Below, one piece after another: positions 262-45,571 of a stretch of DNA of 64,000 nucleotides (position 1 is its first letter; each line of letters starts with the position of its first letter). The translations under genes were made by a program, and so were the position numbers. The stretch lies in contig NZ_AP024620.1 in the NCBI RefSeq assembly GCF_023734095.1, positions 1,918,501 to 1,982,500 on the forward strand, given 5' to 3'. The notes under the pieces were generated by a model. The model saw nothing but the letters and a program-made list of their open reading frames with translations, did no database searches and was not told the origin of the DNA. The DNA is from Moorella sp. Hama-1 (GTDB lineage: Bacteria; Bacillota; DSM-521; Neomoorellales; Neomoorellaceae).

Positions 262-1014
262 TCAAAAAAAGGTGGCCGTGTACCAGTTGATTATTGTTGT
301 CCCCCACCAGATGGTGCTCATGGTTCCCAGGGCCAGGAAGGGGGCAAAGGGCAAAGGGTCGCGGCGTCCCCGGCGGCCCAGGAGCACCAGCAGCAGCCCG
401 GCTACGGCCCCCGCCAGGACCGCCAGGAAAAGGGCCAGGAGGACCTCCTGCCACCCCAGGAAAAGCCCCATCACCAGGCCAACCTTGACGTCACCGCCGC
501 CCATGCCGCCCCGGCTGAGGACCGCGATCAGGAGCAGCAGGCCCCCGCCCAGGCCGGCTCCCAGGAGGGCCGCCGGCCACGGCATTTCCCCCAGGGGCAG
601 GAAAACCAGGCCCCCCGCCAGGCCCAGCCAGACCAGGGGGTCCGGTATGGTGCAGGTCTGCAGGTCAACGCCGGCAATCACCAGGAGTAAAGAGGCCAGG
701 AAGGCGTATTTGACCGTTAGCGGGGAGAAACCGAAACGTTGCCAGAGGCTCAAATAAATGGCCGCCGTCAGGAGTTCGATCCCCGGGTACCACCAGGGCA
801 CGGGGGTGCCGCAGTTGCGGCAGCGCCCCCGGTAGATGAGATAACCCAGAACCGGCATCAACTCCAGCGGTCCCAGGCGCCGCCCGCAGGCGTCACAGTG
901 GGACGGCGGGTAGACGACGGACTCCCCCCGGGGGATACGGGTGATGCACAGGCCCAGGAAACTGCCGGTAGTAAGGCCGAGCAAAGCAATAAGTACCTGA
1001 ACTATACCTGCCAT
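262..1014 (-). CDS. pilD: Prepilin peptidase (type IV leader peptidase, A24)
   Basis: Membrane aspartyl protease that cleaves and N-methylates type IV prepilins; 250 aa, the usual length. The N-terminal half has the two zinc-type Cys pairs of the methylase domain (CDAC near residue 40, CRNC near 65). The catalytic aspartates are visible in VDLQTCTIPD and in GGMGGGDVK. Several hydrophobic segments match the integral membrane fold. It is the last gene of the pilC-pilin-pilD unit, 6 bp after the pilin stop, so it should follow the same c-di-GMP riboswitch control. Confidence 0.95.
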   Translation of the reverse strand: MAGIVQVLIALLGLTTGSFLGLCITRIPRGESVVYPPSHCDACGRRLGPLELMPVLGYLIYRGRCRNCGTPVPWWYPGIELLTAAIYLSLWQRFGFSPLTVKYAFLASLLLVIAGVDLQTCTIPDPLVWLGLAGGLVFLPLGEMPWPAALLGAGLGGGLLLLIAVLSRGGMGGGDVKVGLVMGLFLGWQEVLLALFLAVLAGAVAGLLLVLLGRRGRRDPLPFAPFLALGTMSTIWWGTTIINWYTATFF

Positions 1015-1020
1015 TGAAGA

Positions 1021-1422
1021 CTATTGTTGTGTCGGCGGATAATATACTGGGCTACCATTGGGAGCCTGGTAATATAAGGTAAAGGGAACGTAAATATTAT
1101 TGCCCGATGGATTGTAAGTAATAGTTGAATAGTAGTATTCTCCATTCCATGGCGTCTTGGGTACACTGGCAAGGTATTTGCCAGCCACCAAGTTGGACAA
1201 AGCACCAGGCTTTTCCCCCTCTGCCGTATAATACATCTCTATGGCCGAACCTATGGTCTTCAAGTCGGCATTTGCTTTGGCTACCTTCGCTTTATCGCTC
1301 TGTCCCATAAACTGGGGCACGGCGATGGCCGCCAGGATGCCGATAATGATGACCACCACCATGAGTTCAATCAGGGTGAAGCCGCGGCTGTTCCGCAGTA
1401 TTGCCCGTAACTTTTTAGCCAT
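1021..1422 (-). CDS. pilA: Type IV pilin-like protein (GspG/PilA type)
   Basis: 133-aa prepilin. After a short basic leader comes the class III signal G|FTLIELMVVVIIIGILAA, with Glu at +5 of the mature protein, then the hydrophobic N-terminal helix used for assembly. The globular part has the DLKTIGSAIEMYYTAEG pattern of major pseudopilins or pilins. I chose the ATG at 1422 because GGGAGG lies about 8 nt upstream; a TTG 18 nt earlier overlaps that ribosome site. It sits directly upstream of its processing peptidase and is probably the major or a minor pilin. Confidence 0.9.
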   Translation of the reverse strand: MAKKLRAILRNSRGFTLIELMVVVIIIGILAAIAVPQFMGQSDKAKVAKANADLKTIGSAIEMYYTAEGEKPGALSNLVAGKYLASVPKTPWNGEYYYSTITYNPSGNNIYVPFTLYYQAPNGSPVYYPPTQQ

Positions 1423-1476
1423 AAATTTAAACCCTCCCAAAAACTTAATTGTTACTAACCGGCATATTTCCTTGCT

Positions 1477-1698: not shown

Positions 1699-2913
1699 TC
1701 AATGCACCCCGCCGGCCAGGGAAAAGACCGGCATGAGTACCGAGATCACCACCAGGCCGATGATCCCCCCCAGGGTCAGGATCAATACCGGTTCGATTAA
1801 AGACGACAACCGGGTTACCGTCTCCCCCACTTCGCGGTCGTAGCAGCTGCTGATCTTCGCCAGCAGGGCGTCCAGGGCTCCCGTCTCCTCGCCGACGGCA
1901 ATCATCTCCACCACCATGGGCGGGAAAACGCCGCTGGCTTCCAGGGGCGCTGCCAGGCTCTGGCCGTCCCGCACGCTCTCTTCGGCCCTGGCTACAGCCC
2001 CGGCTACCACGGCGTTGCCCACCGTGCGCCGGACAACCGCCAGGGCGGACAGGACCGGTACCCCGCTGTGAATAAGGGTCCCCAAGGTGCGGCTAAAGCG
2101 GGACAACACCGCCTTCTGCATAACGGGTCCAAAAACCGGCAGGCGGAGGAGGAGGCGATCCAGCTGGTAACGCCCGTTCGGCCCCTGCTGCCAGCGCCAG
2201 AAACTATATGTAGCCACGGCCAGAGTAACCAGCAGTACCGGCCAGGCCCACCGCAGGGTGCTGCTCATCCCCAGGACCAGGCGCGTCGGCCAGGGCAGGG
2301 GCACCTGCATACTGGCCAGCATGTTTTGAAAGGTCGGCAGGACATAGGTCAGGAGGAACATCACCGCCCCCACCGCCACCAGGCTCACTACAGCCGGGTA
2401 GGTGAGGGCCGACTTCACCTTTTCCTCCACTTCGTGCTCCCGTTCCAGGTGCTCCGCCAGGTGCTCCAGGGTCTCGTCCAGGGTGCCCCCCAGCTCCCCG
2501 GCCTCCACGGTGTAGACAAAAATCGGCGGGAAGACCCGGGGCTGGTGCTCCAGAGCCCGGTAAAGGGCCTCTCCGGCTTCCAGCTCCCCCAGCAAAGCAG
2601 CGGTACTCTCCCGCAGGGTGGAGTTATCCAGCTGCTTCTGCAAGATCTGCAGGGCCGAAACAATGGGCAGGCCGGCTCCCAACATGGTGGCCAGCTGGCG
2701 GCAGAAGAGAGCCAGGTCGCGCCGGCTCACCCGCCGCCGTAAAAACTGTCGCCAATCCCTGGGCCTAATCCCGGTGCCAGCCGCCGGCCGGCAGGCAGTG
2801 ATAAAAATACCCCGGCCACGCAATTCCCGGACGGCCAGTTCCTGGTTGCCGGCTTCAATCGTCCCCTGCACCGCCTCCCCCCGTGTATCTCGCCCCCGGT
2901 ATGCAAAGGTCAT
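1699..2913 (-). CDS. pilC: Type IV pilus inner-membrane assembly protein PilC
   Basis: 404-aa platform protein of the T2SF/GspF family. Two homologous T2SF domains are visible (about residues 70-190 and 275-395), each with the conserved hydrophobic segments; LALFCRQLATMLGAGLPI and LGTLIHSGVPVLSAL are the repeated cores. It couples the PilB/PilT motors to the growing pilus in the membrane. It is the first gene after the c-di-GMP riboswitch and is followed by the pilin and peptidase. GGGGG precedes the ATG. Confidence 0.95.
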   Translation of the reverse strand: MTFAYRGRDTRGEAVQGTIEAGNQELAVRELRGRGIFITACRPAAGTGIRPRDWRQFLRRRVSRRDLALFCRQLATMLGAGLPIVSALQILQKQLDNSTLRESTAALLGELEAGEALYRALEHQPRVFPPIFVYTVEAGELGGTLDETLEHLAEHLEREHEVEEKVKSALTYPAVVSLVAVGAVMFLLTYVLPTFQNMLASMQVPLPWPTRLVLGMSSTLRWAWPVLLVTLAVATYSFWRWQQGPNGRYQLDRLLLRLPVFGPVMQKAVLSRFSRTLGTLIHSGVPVLSALAVVRRTVGNAVVAGAVARAEESVRDGQSLAAPLEASGVFPPMVVEMIAVGEETGALDALLAKISSCYDREVGETVTRLSSLIEPVLILTLGGIIGLVVISVLMPVFSLAGGVH

Positions 2914-2924
2914 AATTTACCCCC

Positions 2925-2970
2925 AAAAAAAGCCCCCGGTTGCAAGGAAAGATCTAGCTTCCCCGGCAGC
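2925..2970 (-). terminator. Riboswitch expression-platform terminator
   Basis: On the minus strand the arm GCTGCCGG can pair with CCGGGGGC (one mismatch, one GU), followed directly by seven T residues and then the pilC ribosome site. The upstream arm is also the 3' strand of the c-di-GMP aptamer. Ligand binding should therefore compete with the terminator and favour read-through; that direction is inferred. Confidence 0.6.
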
Positions 2971-3046
2971 CCGGCGGCCATAGACAGGTCTACAGGCCCG
3001 TAGCTTTGCGCCCCCGGCTTTCGCCGGGTTTGCCTTGAGCAAGGAT
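2960..3046 (-). promoter_or_regulatory. Cyclic di-GMP class I (GEMM-I) riboswitch
   Basis: Read on the minus strand, the leader of pilC carries the hallmark GEMM-I blocks in order: AAGGCAAACC, a GC-rich hairpin closed by a GAAA tetraloop, GGGGCGCAAAGCTACGGGCC, and a 3' helix strand GGCCGCCGGGCTGCCGG. These match the GGCAAACC / GACGCAAAGC / GGTTACCG-type core of the Vc2 aptamer, including the GNRA loop of P2. It starts about 10 nt after the -10 of a sigma-H-like promoter and ends in a terminator just before pilC, so it should control pilC, the pilin and pilD. Confidence 0.9.
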
Positions 3047-3055
3047 AATAGTCAT

Positions 3056-3084
3056 TTATTCGCCATCAAAAGCCAGAATCCTGC
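3056..3084 (-). promoter_or_regulatory. Sigma-H-like promoter for the riboswitch-pilC unit
   Basis: Minus strand GCAGGATTC, 11 nt, then GGCGAATAA. This fits the Spo0H consensus RNAGGAWWW-N11/12-RNNGAATWW. The expected start point lies immediately before the c-di-GMP aptamer, which supports a real promoter. Confidence 0.65.
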
Positions 3085-3099
3085 CAGTTCATACCCCGT

Positions 3100-4119
3100 T
3101 TAATCATAATTTAATGCTGCGCCGGCAATTACGCCCTCAACCGTGAGCTGTCGCAGGGCGGCATCCATGGTCTGCATCCCGTAACGGGCCCCTGTCTGCA
3201 TGCTGGATATAATCTGGTGGGTCTTGCCTTCACGGATGAGGTTTCTGACTGCCGGGGTAGCAATCAAAATCTCCACTGCCGCGACCCGGCCTGCCCTATC
3301 CGCTCGCGGCAAGAGCTGCTGGGTAATAACCCCTTCCAGGGTATCGGCCAGCTGGATGCGGATCTGGCCCTGCTGGTGGGGCGGAAAGACGTCGACGATG
3401 CGGTCGATACTCTGGATGGCGCTGCTGGTATGGAGGGTGGCCAGGACCAGGTGACCGGTTTCCGCGGCGGTAATGGCCGTGGCGATGGTTTCCAGGTCGC
3501 GCATTTCCCCCACCAGGATGACATCCGGGTCCTGGCGCAGGGCGGCCCGCAGGGCCCGGGCAAAGGAATGGGTATCAGAACCCACCTCCCGCTGGTTGAC
3601 GATGCTCAACCGGTGCTGGTGCAGGTACTCAATGGGGTCCTCCAGGGTAATGATATGGCAGCGGCGTTCCCGGTTGATTTTATCCACCATGGCCGCCAGG
3701 GTGGTGGACTTGCCGCTACCCGTCGGTCCCGTGACCAGGACCAGGCCATGCCGGCGCTCCGCCAGTTCCCCCACCACCGGCGGTAAACCTAAGGTCTCCA
3801 GGCCCGGGATCGCCCTGGGGATCAGGCGGATGGCAGCCCCGGTGCTGCCCCGCTGGTGAAAGACGTTGACCCGGAAACGGCTTACCCCGGGCAGGGAATA
3901 GGCCAGGTCGATTTCGCCCTGCTCCTGAAATACCTCCCAGCGCTCGCTCACCATCGGCCGTACCAGGCCTGCGGCCATCCCGGCATCCAGGGGCTCCCAC
4001 TGGTGCTGGACCTGGAGTTCACCATTGATCCGGAAGACCGGCGGCAAGCCAACAGCGAGATGGACATCGGAAGCCCCGGCTGCGGCGGCGGCCACCAGGA
4101 TGGTTTTTATATCGAGCAT
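3100..4119 (-). CDS. pilT: Type IV pilus retraction ATPase PilT
   Basis: 339-aa hexameric motor that depolymerises pili (twitching). It has the PilT N domain (SDVHLAVGLPP), Walker A GPTGSGKSTT, Asp box (IITLEDPIEYLHQH), Walker B (DPDVILVGEMRD) and the His box ETGHLVLATLHT, and ends near the AIRNLIREGK-type motif (here AVRNLIREGK). The ATG at 4119 is preferred over one at 4125 because AAAGGGGG abuts the earlier one and is 6 nt from the later one. It follows pilB by 12 bp and is separated from pilC by the riboswitch. Confidence 0.95.
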   Translation of the reverse strand: MLDIKTILVAAAAAGASDVHLAVGLPPVFRINGELQVQHQWEPLDAGMAAGLVRPMVSERWEVFQEQGEIDLAYSLPGVSRFRVNVFHQRGSTGAAIRLIPRAIPGLETLGLPPVVGELAERRHGLVLVTGPTGSGKSTTLAAMVDKINRERRCHIITLEDPIEYLHQHRLSIVNQREVGSDTHSFARALRAALRQDPDVILVGEMRDLETIATAITAAETGHLVLATLHTSSAIQSIDRIVDVFPPHQQGQIRIQLADTLEGVITQQLLPRADRAGRVAAVEILIATPAVRNLIREGKTHQIISSMQTGARYGMQTMDAALRQLTVEGVIAGAALNYD

Positions 4120-4131
4120 CTGCATCCCCCT

Positions 4132-5793
4132 TTACAGGCCCCCCAGGGAAACCCGCAGGACCTCGTTCACCGTGGTGATTCCCTGGCGGACCTTGGCCAG
4201 CCCATCTTCTATTAAAGGTACCATACCAGCGGTAATGGCCGCCTCCTTCAGGGCCGTGGCCGGTGCCTTGGCGGCCACCAGGCCCCGGAGTTCCTCGTTC
4301 ATGACCAGGACCTCCTGGATGGCCGTCCGACCGGCATAACCGGTATAGTGGCAGCCCTCACAGCCCCGGCCGCGCCAGAGTTCCTCGCTCTCCGGTAGCC
4401 AGGATCGTTCCAGGGTCCCGGGCTCGGGCCGGTAGGCTTCCCGGCAGCGGGGGCAGATCTGGCGCACCAATCGCTGGGCCACCACGCCGATGAGGGAGGA
4501 ATTCACCAGGTAGGCCTCGATACCCATGTCCAGCAGGCGGGTTATCGCCCCGGCGGCGTCGTTGGTGTGCAGGGTGCTGAAGACCAGGTGCCCGGTAGTT
4601 GCCGCCCGGACGGCTATATCGGCCGTCTCCCGGTCCCGGATTTCCCCCACCATGATGATATCCGGGTCCTGGCGCAGGATGGAACGCAGGCCGGAGGCAA
4701 AGGAGAGTCCGGCCCTGGGGTTGACCCGCACCTGGTTGATGCCGGGTAGCAGGTACTCTACCGGGTCCTCAATGGTAACGATATTTTTCTCCGGTGAACT
4801 CAAGGAATTGAGGGTGGCGTACAGGGTCGTCGTCTTGCCGCTCCCCGTTGGTCCGGTAATCAATAACATACCGTAAGCACTCCGGACCAGGCTGTTATAG
4901 CGTTCCTGAACGGCAGGCAGGAACCCCAGACGGTCCAGGGGCAGGAGCATGGCCTCCTGGTCCAGCAGGCGCAGGACGACTTTTTCTCCGTAGACCGTCG
5001 GCAGGCTGGAAACCCGCAGGTCAACGCTGCGCTTCCCCAGGGTAAACTGGAAGCGGCCGTCCTGGGGCAGCCGTTTTTCGGCAATATCCATCCCGGCCAG
5101 GATCTTGATTCTGGAGATCAGGCTACTTAGAACCCCCAGGGGCAGGCGGGTCAACTCCCGCAGCAGGCCGTCCACCCGCAGGCGCACCCGGACTTCCCCC
5201 TCCTGGGGCTCAATATGGATGTCGCTGGCCCGGGTCTGGATGGCCTGCTGGATAAAGCTGTTGACCAGGCGCACAGCCGGCGCGCCTTCAGTGCCGCCGG
5301 CGCGCCCGCCAGATTCCGCGGCAGCGACGGCTGCCGCCACTTCGCTCATACTCGTAACGGTTTCCTGCTGCCAAAACCGGCTTAAAGCTGCCTCGATCTC
5401 CCCCTCGGCGGCGATGGCCGGCATAATCTCCTTGCCGGTGACCAGGCGCAGATCGTCCAGGGCCAGGAGGTTCAGGGGGTCGGCCAGGGCTACCAGCAGG
5501 CGGTTGCCGTCCAAGCGGATGGGTATAGCCTGGTAACGCCGGGCCAGGCCCTCCGGCACCAGGCGGACTACCTCCGGGTCCAGGTGGTAGTCCGCCAGGA
5601 CCACCTTGGGAATGCCCAGCTGGAATTCCAGGACCTCCAGCATGCTGGCTTCGGTGACCAAGCCTAGGCGCAGCAAGACCTTACCCAGGCGTTCCCCACT
5701 GCGTTTCTGCTCCTGCAGGGCCTGGTCCAGCTGTTCCCTGGTGATCATCCCGGCTTCTAATAAAAGATCCCCCAGGCGCCGGCGACCGTCCAT
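4132..5793 (-). CDS. pilB: Type IV pilus extension ATPase PilB
   Basis: 553-aa GspE/PilB assembly motor. An N-terminal MshEN/T2SSE_N domain (about residues 1-150) precedes the ATPase core: Walker A GPTGSGKTTTLYA, Asp box TIEDPVEYLLPG, Walker B DPDIIMVGEIRD, His box TTGHLVFSTLHTND, and a tetracysteine zinc motif (CPRC ... CEGC). Start at 5793 is set by GGAGGGG 5 nt upstream; an in-frame extension to 5853 lacks one. It heads a pilB-pilT pair downstream of aroB, with a palindromic repeat in the gap. Confidence 0.95.
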   Translation of the reverse strand: MDGRRRLGDLLLEAGMITREQLDQALQEQKRSGERLGKVLLRLGLVTEASMLEVLEFQLGIPKVVLADYHLDPEVVRLVPEGLARRYQAIPIRLDGNRLLVALADPLNLLALDDLRLVTGKEIMPAIAAEGEIEAALSRFWQQETVTSMSEVAAAVAAAESGGRAGGTEGAPAVRLVNSFIQQAIQTRASDIHIEPQEGEVRVRLRVDGLLRELTRLPLGVLSSLISRIKILAGMDIAEKRLPQDGRFQFTLGKRSVDLRVSSLPTVYGEKVVLRLLDQEAMLLPLDRLGFLPAVQERYNSLVRSAYGMLLITGPTGSGKTTTLYATLNSLSSPEKNIVTIEDPVEYLLPGINQVRVNPRAGLSFASGLRSILRQDPDIIMVGEIRDRETADIAVRAATTGHLVFSTLHTNDAAGAITRLLDMGIEAYLVNSSLIGVVAQRLVRQICPRCREAYRPEPGTLERSWLPESEELWRGRGCEGCHYTGYAGRTAIQEVLVMNEELRGLVAAKAPATALKEAAITAGMVPLIEDGLAKVRQGITTVNEVLRVSLGGL

Positions 5794-5892
5794 AGAGCTC
5801 CCCTCCGAATTAGATGTAGCTGCTCTTCCTATGGAGCCTTTCACAGGGCACACGCCCCATCCGGCAAGCCACTAAAATGTAGATTTAAACGA

Positions 5893-30385: not shown

Positions 30386-32581
30386 TCACCTCCCGGCCCG
30401 GGCCAATACCCCGGCATTAGGGTTATTCCAGACGGGGCGGAGGGTGGTATTATCCGCCCCGGTCCGTGCTTGATGTTTTTCGGCCTGGATTTCGGCCAGG
30501 GCCTGCTCCAGGTGCCTGGTCCTGAGGAGCTTTTCCTGGCCCTCCCTGGCGGCTATGTAGTCGCCGATGGCCAGGAGGGCCGCCCTCTTACATAAGGCCT
30601 CAATCTCTGACCCCACCAGGCCTTCGGCCGCCAGGGCCAGGGCGTCTAGATTAAGGTCCGGCTCCACCGGGCGGTTGCGGAGATAGACATGGAAAATCTC
30701 CTTCCGGGCCTCCTGATCCGGATAGGGGAAGACCAGGATTTGATCGAACCGGCCCGGCCTGAGCACCGCCGGATCAATCATATCGATCCGGTTGGTGGCA
30801 CCCAGGACTATGACCTCCCGCAGGTCTTCCAGCCCATCTAACTCCATTAAGAACTGGGAGACCAGGCGACTGCCGGCACTGCTGCCCTCGCCGCCCTTCC
30901 GGGCCGGAACCAGGGCGTCCAGTTCATCGAAAAAGAGGAGGCAGGGAGAGGCCTGGCGGGCTTTGCGAAAAACTTCATGGAGGGTCTTTTCCGCCTCCCC
31001 CCACCAGTGGGAAAAGAGGAGGGAACTATTGACCGGTATAAAATTGATCCCACTTTCCCGGGCCAGGGCGCGGGCGACCAGGGTCTTACCCGTTCCCGGG
31101 GGCCCGGAAAGGAGGATGCCCCGGGGGCTTTGCAGCGCAAACTGCCGGAAAATCTCTGGATATTGTAAGGGCCACTCAACCATAGCCCGTAAGCGCTGTT
31201 TTATCTCTTCCAGGCCGCCGATGTCCTGCCAGGTGGCGTCAGGGATCTCCATGGCGAATTCCCTGGTAGCCGAGGGCTCAACCTCCGTCAGGGCGTCGAG
31301 GAAATCCCGCATATTCACCTGCAGTTCCAGGTCTTCCAGATGGTCGTTACCCAGCTGGAAGCCAGCCAGACCCCGGCGTAGGGCGTACATGCCGGCTTCC
31401 CGGCAGAGGGCGGCCAGGTCGGCACCGACAAACCCGTGAGTTATGGCCGCCAGCCGGTCCAGGGAGACATCGTCAGCCAGGGACATGCCCCGGGTGTGAA
31501 TCTGCAGGATCTCCCGCCGGCCCCTCTGGTCGGGCACGTTAATGGCTATTTCCCGGTCAAAACGCCCCGGTCGCCGTAGGGCCGGGTCGACCAGATCGGG
31601 AATATTTGTGGCGGCAATCACAATTACATGGCCACGGGATTCCAACCCGTCCATCAAGGCCAGGAGCTGGGCAACCACCCGTTTTTCTACATCGCCGTGG
31701 ACATCGGCCCGGCGGGGGGCCAGGGCATCGATTTCATCCAGGAAGATAATGCTCGGGGCTTTCTTCCGGGCTTCATCAAAGACCTGGCGCAGGCGGGCTT
31801 CGCTTTCGCCGTAGTATTTATGCATGATCTCCGGGCCATTGACGTGGATGAAGTGGGCCTCCGTCTCTGAAGCTACGGCCCGGGCAATCAGGGTTTTACC
31901 TGTACCAGGAGCACCGTGCAACAGGATGCCCTTGGGGGCTTCCACCCCCAGGCGCCGGAAGAGTTGCGGGTATTTTAATGGTAATTCGATAATTTCCCGT
32001 ACCCGGCGGACTTCTTTGGCCAGGCCGCCAATATCCTCGTAGGTAACCTTTTGGCCTTGACCTTCGGTTGTTTCTCCACCCTTAAAGCGTACCGCCGTAT
32101 CCCGGGTAATGATTACAGCCCCCCGGGGTGCCGCTCCCTCAACGGTAAAGGCTTCATCGTTACCGCTGAACTGGGGAATGGTTACCTGATCCCCCGGGAC
32201 TACGGCCCGGCCTATCAGGTGCTTTTTCAAGTAGACAATCTCGTGGTCGCCGCCCATGGTCCAGCCGGGCAAGACCGGAGCCAGGACCACAGTCCGGGCC
32301 GCCTGCCAATCCGTGGGGGTGAGGGTCACGCCTTCACCGATGCTGACCCGGGCGTTTTGGCGCTGGAGGCCGTCCATCTGGATGTTCCCCGGCGGGCAAC
32401 CATCCTGAAAGGCGGGCATCACCCGGGCGACGGTCTGGCGCTTACCGGTAATGGCGACTACATCATTGGGCTGCAAACCCAATTCTTCCATCACCGATGT
32501 CAATACCCGTACTATCCCTTTGCGGGCATCCTCCACCATGCCCTCACAAACACGGAGTTTAACGGCCTGCTCTTCCGGCAT
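30386..32581 (-). CDS. Cdc48/VAT-type AAA+ ATPase (two AAA domains)
   Basis: 731 aa. An N-terminal double-psi barrel/VAT-N-like domain (residues about 1-170) precedes D1 (Walker A HGAPGTGKTLIARAVASE, Walker B IIFLDEIDALAPRR) and D2 (SGPPGTGKTLVARALARESG, LLFFDELDALVPAR), each with Arg fingers (LRRPGRFDREI; LRPGRFDQI). Typical of archaea and rarer in bacteria. It is an unfoldase/segregase. The ATG at 32581 has AAGGAG 9 nt upstream. It lies upstream of oxalate oxidoreductase in the same direction with a 150-bp gap. Confidence 0.92.
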   Translation of the reverse strand: MPEEQAVKLRVCEGMVEDARKGIVRVLTSVMEELGLQPNDVVAITGKRQTVARVMPAFQDGCPPGNIQMDGLQRQNARVSIGEGVTLTPTDWQAARTVVLAPVLPGWTMGGDHEIVYLKKHLIGRAVVPGDQVTIPQFSGNDEAFTVEGAAPRGAVIITRDTAVRFKGGETTEGQGQKVTYEDIGGLAKEVRRVREIIELPLKYPQLFRRLGVEAPKGILLHGAPGTGKTLIARAVASETEAHFIHVNGPEIMHKYYGESEARLRQVFDEARKKAPSIIFLDEIDALAPRRADVHGDVEKRVVAQLLALMDGLESRGHVIVIAATNIPDLVDPALRRPGRFDREIAINVPDQRGRREILQIHTRGMSLADDVSLDRLAAITHGFVGADLAALCREAGMYALRRGLAGFQLGNDHLEDLELQVNMRDFLDALTEVEPSATREFAMEIPDATWQDIGGLEEIKQRLRAMVEWPLQYPEIFRQFALQSPRGILLSGPPGTGKTLVARALARESGINFIPVNSSLLFSHWWGEAEKTLHEVFRKARQASPCLLFFDELDALVPARKGGEGSSAGSRLVSQFLMELDGLEDLREVIVLGATNRIDMIDPAVLRPGRFDQILVFPYPDQEARKEIFHVYLRNRPVEPDLNLDALALAAEGLVGSEIEALCKRAALLAIGDYIAAREGQEKLLRTRHLEQALAEIQAEKHQARTGADNTTLRPVWNNPNAGVLARAGR

Positions 32582-32783
32582 CCAGCACAACTCCTTCACT
32601 CAAGGCCTTCTGGTATACGGTATACCTTATCTTTAGATAAAAATTTTAATCTTGCTTGATCAGGTCCCTCTGATTTATCGCCAACCCCTTTCTAGTAAAC
32701 ATAAAGTCAATTGCCTTGGGATTTTCTTTTTGTCCCCCTAGTCATCCTTTGGTTTTTGGTATACCCTGTTTGCTTGTTATAAA

Positions 32784-44904: not shown

Positions 44905-45414
44905 TCACACCTTCTCCAGGAGATTGGCTTTTTGCAGTAATCTGGCGGTCCTGTTTTTTACTTCATTCACCCGGATCTCATAGAGCTGCTCCCGGCAGGC
45001 CATATAGATATCGAAAGCCTGCAGGGCCAGCCTGTCGACCCGCCCGGCAAAATTAATTATGTCTTCTGGCGGGACGCGGGCGGCCTGGATCTCCCCCGCC
45101 AGCTCCTCCTGGATTATTTTTTTTATAAGGAAGAGACTGCCAATGGCCTGGGAAGGAGGGAAATCCTGAACCGCCTTCAGGCGCAAGAGATCGTCCAGGC
45201 AGGCGGCGACTTTAGCTCTATCCTTTACCTCCAGGAGTTCCTCAAATAACCCGGTTATTGCCTCATAGATGGTATACCCCACCGGATTAGCAAAGCGGTC
45301 TTTTTCGCGTTGCAAAAACCCGGCCGTCTCGGGGGTATACTCCGCCGCCAGCAACTGGAACCACCTGTTCACTACAGCAGTCTTTCTCCCCGCCAGAAAA
45401 TCCTCTAATTTCAT
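44905..45414 (-). CDS. RsbRD N-terminal-domain protein linked to dsrMK
   Basis: 169 aa, all helical. The FLAGRKTAVVNRWFQLLAAEY start and DRFANPVGYTIYEAITGLFE core match the RsbRD_N (globin-like sensor/regulatory) domain that precedes dsrMK in many sulfate reducers. Its role is unproven; regulation or assembly of DsrK is suspected. First gene of the membrane-complex operon, about 160 bp after a sigma-H-like promoter. Confidence 0.85.
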   Translation of the reverse strand: MKLEDFLAGRKTAVVNRWFQLLAAEYTPETAGFLQREKDRFANPVGYTIYEAITGLFEELLEVKDRAKVAACLDDLLRLKAVQDFPPSQAIGSLFLIKKIIQEELAGEIQAARVPPEDIINFAGRVDRLALQAFDIYMACREQLYEIRVNEVKNRTARLLQKANLLEKV

Positions 45415-45571
45415 GTCTATCACGCCTTTATAGGGTAACCGTCTGCCGACCCCGAATCAGCAAGCGCCAGTAAAAGGCATTTTAAAGCCCGGGGTAGGTC
45501 AAACCCCCTTTTTCACAAAACAGGTTCTCGCTTTTTGTCACCGAAGGAACTACTTTTGGTATTTATAAATT

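What the first reader, a model, noticed from the sequence alone, without database searches (positions are those of the whole stretch)
2925..3084. c-di-GMP riboswitch plus sigma-H-like promoter set the pilC-pilin-pilD unit apart from pilB-pilT
Seen: the GEMM-I core blocks, a GAAA-capped P2, and a terminator whose 5' arm is the aptamer's 3' strand, all between pilT and pilC. Inference: pilin, platform and peptidase respond to c-di-GMP (probably switched on) while the two motor ATPases do not.
Basis: partly seen in the sequence, partly recalled or inferred. Interest (0 to 1): 0.6.

Follow-up and report, generated by a model that had tools for sequence, protein, structure and literature searches.

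The report
Pilus genes switched by c-di-GMP riboswitch
Between the pilus motor genes and the pilus assembly genes of a Moorella-type bacterium lies an RNA switch that most likely lets the assembly genes be copied only when the signal molecule c-di-GMP is present; this is a well-conserved new example of a known kind of switch.

Summary
Window 3043-2961 (-) is a class I c-di-GMP riboswitch aptamer (Rfam RF03167, 72.8 bits; RF01051 73.5 bits) between pilT and pilC, with a sigma-H-type promoter at 3084-3058 and a terminator (2979-2931) whose 5' arm is the aptamer's 3' strand, so a folded aptamer and the terminator exclude each other: a predicted ON switch. All three parts recur at pilC in 12 further genomes of the family. 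Among 96 other GEMM-I riboswitches of these genomes (flgB, chemotaxis, HD-domain and other genes) the terminator is mostly independent of the aptamer, as expected of OFF switches. The sigma-H motif occurs 95 times in the genome against 6 for a reversed control, at spoVS among others, and sigH is present. One correction: the extension motor PilB carries an MshEN domain with both c-di-GMP-binding motifs, conserved in its orthologues, so the signal probably reaches PilB as protein. The pilus cluster also continues beyond pilD. Precedents: C. difficile pilA1 (class II, ON) with flgB (class I, OFF), and Geobacter pilM (GEMM-I, ON). New member of a known kind. Ligand binding and read-through could not be tested here.

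The parts
3076..3082 (-). -35 box AGGATTC of the sigma-H-type promoter (preceded by GC, 3084-3083)
   Evidence: Pattern; conserved upstream of pilC in the orthologous loci; genome-wide 95 vs 6
3058..3061 (-). -10 box GAAT (CGAAT with 3062), 14 nt after the -35 box; transcript start expected near 3051 (inference)
   Evidence: consensus in PMC8510167
2961..3043 (-). class I c-di-GMP (GEMM-I) riboswitch aptamer, best Rfam family c-di-GMP-I-GGC
   Evidence: RF03167 72.8 bits, RF01051 73.5 bits
3019..3022 (-). GAAA tetraloop capping P2
2931..2979 (-). terminator hairpin; its 5' arm lies in the aptamer (3' strand of P3 and P1), so the two structures exclude each other
   Evidence: Folds; overlap in 13 of 13 family loci; shuffle test
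2925..2931 (-). U-tract of the terminator
   Evidence: Sequence
2920..2924 (-). ribosome-binding site GGGGG of pilC, right after the U-tract
   Evidence: Sequence
1699..2913 (-). pilC, platform protein (T2SSF, PF00482)
1021..1440 (-). type IV pilin (N_methyl, T2SSG)
262..1014 (-). pilD, prepilin peptidase (A24); the pilus cluster continues beyond the window
3100..4125 (-). pilT, retraction ATPase, upstream of the riboswitch; no MshEN domain
4132..5853 (-). pilB, extension ATPase with N-terminal MshEN domain: RLGDLLLEAGMITREQLDQALQEQ-KRSGE-RLGKVLLRLGLVTEASMLEVLEFQ
   Evidence: PF05157 78.1 bits; motif; consensus in PMC5013675

Best explanation
A sigma-H-type promoter just behind pilT starts a leader RNA in which a class I c-di-GMP aptamer folds first. 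With c-di-GMP bound, the aptamer keeps its 3' strand paired in P3 and P1 and RNA polymerase reads on into pilC, pilin, pilD and probably the pilus genes behind them. Without c-di-GMP, the same strand pairs with the sequence before the U-tract and transcription stops before pilC. The assembly genes are thus made when sigma-H is active and c-di-GMP is high (an AND arrangement), while flagellar, chemotaxis and other GEMM-I riboswitches of the same genome carry a terminator outside the aptamer and are probably OFF switches. The motor PilB is outside this RNA control but probably binds c-di-GMP itself through MshEN. Shown here: presence, position, conservation, mutually exclusive folds. Inferred: ligand binding, read-through, identity of the sigma factor, extent of the transcript.
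For: Aptamer match. Same riboswitch directly upstream of pilC in 12 other genomes of the family, and in Thermosediminibacter and Desulfofundulus/Desulfovirgula. Overlapping terminator in 13 of 13 family loci, -19.5 to -34.4 kcal/mol, starting 17-20 nt inside the aptamer, with no or only a weak independent terminator. Of 96 other GEMM-I sites in these genomes only 3 have an overlapping hairpin alone, and one of the 3 precedes another pilin-pilC operon. Free folding forms the terminator and enforcing the aptamer removes it, at 37 and 60 C. Sigma-H box kept at the family loci, 95 vs 6 genome-wide, also at spoVS; sigH at 378 bits. MshEN motifs in 11 PilB sequences in full and in one in part.
Against: No binding or transcription data. 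Formal covariation of the terminator among nine close orthologues is not above shuffles: one pair changed on both sides. The terminator fold is about 23 kcal/mol more stable than the aptamer-enforced fold, so the switch must act during transcription. In Desulfofundulus the pilC riboswitch has a sigma-A-like promoter and an independent terminator, so polarity is not fixed by the regulated gene.
Confidence: 0.84

Rival explanations
1. The aptamer is real but the switch is OFF: c-di-GMP ends transcription before pilC, as in the class I riboswitches of C. difficile.
For: The functional class I switches of C. difficile are all OFF (PMC6366702); the Desulfofundulus pilC riboswitch has an independent terminator.
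Against: In the window and 12 orthologues the terminator needs the aptamer's own 3' strand, so a folded aptamer cannot coexist with it; in most of them no independent terminator follows.
Confidence: 0.06
2. The riboswitch prefers another ligand: 3',3'-cGAMP, as the Geobacter pilM GEMM-I riboswitch does, or something else because it is a 'GGC' variant.
For: Best Rfam family is the variant c-di-GMP-I-GGC; Geobacter pilM, also ON at pilus genes, binds cGAMP (PMC9262584).
Against: The base at the place of Vc2 G20, a selectivity position, is G here and in the orthologues; orthologues in sister genera match ordinary RF01051 best at the same locus; the 7 of 8 GGDEF domains that could be read have Asp or Asn and not the Hypr Ser.
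Confidence: 0.06
3. pilB to pilD is mainly one transcript from a promoter upstream of pilB and the internal promoter matters little; the riboswitch only sets how much of it reaches pilC.
For: The genes are close and collinear; a pilB promoter was not mapped.
Against: The sigma-H box behind pilT is kept while its surroundings change. Even if true, the riboswitch would still control the distal part.
Confidence: 0.2

Closest known systems
Geobacter metallireducens pilM riboswitch (GEMM-I, cGAMP), PMC9262584
   Same: GEMM-I aptamer before pilus assembly genes; transcriptional ON switch; terminator and aptamer mutually exclusive
   Different: Ligand there is cGAMP and the first gene is pilM; here c-di-GMP is expected, the gene is pilC and the promoter is sigma-H-type
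C. difficile Cdi-2-4 (pilA1, class II, ON) and Cd1 (flgB, class I, OFF), PMC6366702
   Same: High c-di-GMP turns type IV pilus genes on through a riboswitch; flgB has a class I riboswitch too
   Different: There the two signs come from two unrelated aptamer classes; here both loci carry class I aptamers with different expression platforms
Rfam RF03167 c-di-GMP-I-GGC
   Same: Whole-length match over the gathering score
   Different: Orthologous riboswitches at the same locus in sister genera match RF01051 best, so the split between the two Rfam families does not follow the locus
MshEN domain of V. cholerae MshE and T. thermophilus PilF, PMC5013675 and PMC11731258
   Same: Two 24-residue motifs with a 5-residue spacer in PilB
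   Different: Met at two hydrophobic motif positions; binding untested
Bacillus sigma-H promoters (RNAGGAWWW / RNNGAATWW), PMC8510167
   Same: Both boxes; same motif upstream of spoVS
   Different: Last -35 base is C in the window; transcription start not mapped

Membership tests
c-di-GMP-I (GEMM-I) riboswitch | Covariance-model match over the whole aptamer | tested here: met
   RF03167 72.8 bits, RF01051 73.5 bits
c-di-GMP-I (GEMM-I) riboswitch | GNRA-capped P2 (its tertiary contact with P3 not tested) | tested here: met
   GAAA loop, conserved in the family
c-di-GMP-I (GEMM-I) riboswitch | Binds c-di-GMP | not testable with these tools
   Needs in-line probing or ITC
c-di-GMP-I (GEMM-I) riboswitch | Leader of a gene for motility, surface or membrane function | tested here: met
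   Directly upstream of pilC in 13 family genomes
cGAMP-selective GEMM-Ib | A in place of Vc2 G20 (numbering from own knowledge) | tested here: not met
   G at that position in the window and orthologues
cGAMP-selective GEMM-Ib | Hypr GGDEF (Ser signature) in the genome | tested here: inconclusive
   Absent in the 7 GGDEF domains read; the eighth could not be read
ON-type transcriptional riboswitch | Terminator competes with an aptamer strand | tested here: met
ON-type transcriptional riboswitch | Ligand raises read-through | not testable with these tools
   Needs in vitro transcription
sigma-H promoter | RNAGGAWWW and RNNGAAT boxes | tested here: met
   Kept at the orthologous loci; last W is C in the window
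sigma-H promoter | Sigma-H in the genome and motif at a known sigma-H target | tested here: met
   TIGR02859 378 bits; spoVS
sigma-H promoter | Transcription lost without sigH | not testable with these tools
   Experiment
MshEN domain (PilB) | Two motifs RLGxx(LVI)(LVI)xxG(LVI)(LVI)xxxxLxxxLxxQ with a 5-residue spacer | tested here: met
   PF05157 78.1 bits; relaxed motif of PMC5013675 met, the strict one not (Met at two positions)

The most novel reading that the evidence does not exclude
One signal controls the pilus at two levels behind a growth-phase gate: sigma-H opens the promoter, c-di-GMP lets the RNA through by an ON class I riboswitch and also binds the motor PilB through MshEN, while class I riboswitches of the same genome turn flagellar genes off.
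Probability: 0.5. Interest if true: 0.5.

Novelty: new member of a known kind. Interest (0 to 1): 0.4.

Why it matters
It shows, with conservation across a family of anaerobes, how one aptamer class can be wired ON for pili and apparently OFF for flagella in the same genome, and it puts a sporulation-phase sigma factor and a probable c-di-GMP-binding motor into the same pathway. It gives a testable layout for surface attachment in Moorella-type bacteria; the open papers searched here held nothing on this switch.

Tried and rejected
Covariation count on nine close orthologues: 92.4% of cells paired against 38-67% for slid versions, but compensatory changes not above shuffles, so it is not used as proof. 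Whole-sequence shuffles of the 51-nt terminator gave z -0.87: its stability alone is explained by composition; the overlap test and conservation carry the argument. SpoVG as a sigma-H control: absent from the genome. A sigma-H box near a GGDEF gene (genome 1517571) lies within its open frame, start uncertain, and was dropped. Antiterminator calculation for the other riboswitches of the genome: clear for L019 and L021, partial for L020 and L023, weak or absent for L022 and L027, so OFF is stated only as probable. Weinberg 2017, which I recall as the source of the GGC family, is not held.

Full report
What is there. On the minus strand, between the end of pilT (3100) and the start of pilC (2913), cmscan finds the only RNA family of the window: c-di-GMP-I-GGC, RF03167, 3043-2961, 72.8 bits against a gathering score of 59. 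The ordinary class I family RF01051 matches the same place with 73.5 bits. P2 is capped by GAAA. The hairpin before the U-tract (2931-2925) runs from 2979 to 2931; its outer 5' arm is the 3' strand of P3 and it continues through the 3' strand of P1. Upstream, GCAGGATT-N14-CGAAT (3084-3058) fits the sigma-H consensus RNAGGAWWW / RNNGAATWW (PMC8510167) apart from the last -35 base.

More than chance. The exact pattern RNAGGAWW-N14-SGAAT occurs 4 times in the window against 0.13 expected, and 95 times in the genome against 6 for the reversed pattern. Of 30 sites looked at, 24 have a plausible start codon shortly downstream; by eye these include a ribosome-hibernation-factor-like protein and a DnaG-like primase. 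One spoVS gene lies behind an exact copy and the other behind a one-base variant, and the genome has a full-score sigH (378 bits). The overlapping terminator is stronger than in all 60 shuffles of the downstream sequence, for the window and for nine orthologues.

Conservation. PilC homologues were found in 16 of 18 genomes of the family. In 13 of these genomes, the window's own included, the riboswitch lies directly upstream, with the sigma-H box (one has GAAA, one lies further upstream). In all 13 the terminator starts 17-20 nt inside the aptamer, at -19.5 to -34.4 kcal/mol, and an independent terminator is absent or weak. A search of named genomes places the same riboswitch upstream of pilC in Moorella stamsii, M. 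mulderi, M. sulfitireducens, Thermosediminibacter, Desulfofundulus and Desulfovirgula. The window genome is therefore Moorella-like (inference). Several of these records are the same genomes as the unnamed ones.

Polarity. Free folding of the leader forms the terminator; with the aptamer pairs enforced the terminator is gone, at 37 and at 60 C. That is the ON layout, as described for the Geobacter pilM riboswitch, whose aptamer and terminator exclude each other (PMC9262584). The 96 other GEMM-I sites of the same genomes were classed by the same rule: 60 with an independent terminator only, 23 with both kinds, 10 with none, 3 with an overlapping one only; one of the three precedes a second pilin-pilC operon in G013. 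The genes behind the others include flgB, methyl-accepting chemotaxis proteins, HD-domain proteins and a secreted protein with a copper-amine-oxidase N-terminal domain. In the window's own genome a strong antiterminator is predicted for two of them, so OFF is likely there and only probable elsewhere.

Ligand. The base at the place of Vc2 G20, described as a selectivity position between cyclic dinucleotides (numbering from own knowledge), is G. Orthologues in sister genera fall into RF01051 rather than RF03167 at the same locus, so the GGC label gives no reason to expect another ligand. The genome has 8 GGDEF domains; in the 7 that could be read the Hypr serine is absent (signature in PMC6456294). 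c-di-GMP is the expected ligand; this is inference.

PilB carries MshEN (PF05157, 78.1 bits) with both 24-residue motifs and the 5-residue spacer known from V. cholerae MshE (PMC5013675), and the motif is kept in the orthologues examined. PilT has none. So the signal most likely reaches the extension motor as protein, and the statement that the motors do not respond holds at most for transcription and for PilT. The unit downstream may also be longer: behind pilD follow a Wzy_C/TPR protein, a second pilin-like protein, PilX, PilM and a T2SSM-like protein, beyond the window. Whether they share the transcript was not tested.

Judgement. A conserved, probably functional ON-type class I c-di-GMP riboswitch behind a sigma-H-type promoter. 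The kind is known (C. difficile pilA1 and flgB, PMC6366702; Geobacter pilM). The combination of a sigma-H gate, an ON class I switch for pili, apparent OFF class I switches for flagella in the same genome, and a probable c-di-GMP-binding motor is the part that a specialist may find worth testing.

Noticed in passing
window 11366-11340, 32812-32786, 45600-45574 (all -): Three more exact sigma-H-type promoters; the second lies upstream of a two-domain AAA ATPase (30386-32599), the third upstream of 44905-45423 and an iron-sulphur, Hdr-like protein. 95 such sites in the genome suggest a large regulon.
   Followed up: partly
L157, L158, L159 near 2340-2465: In Desulfofundulus/Desulfovirgula the pilC riboswitch has a sigma-A-like promoter and an independent terminator, so the polarity may be the other way round at the same gene.
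   Followed up: partly
L024 12086-12179 (-): A class I riboswitch with an overlapping (ON-like) terminator but no clear gene for about 470 nt downstream.
   Followed up: no
G000:C1 2245613-2245690, 2259621-2259698, 2266436-2266492 (L025, L026): Three related degenerate GEMM-like elements (27-41 bits) with intact P2 but altered P3, followed by near-identical sequence; in L026 near genes that look like an AgrB-type protein and a kinase/regulator pair.
   Followed up: partly
L044 706-789: In G013 an ON-layout class I riboswitch precedes a different pilin-pilC operon.
   Followed up: partly
L161 2259-2438: A weaker class I riboswitch match (42 bits) upstream of pilC in an Armatimonadetes MAG.
   Followed up: no
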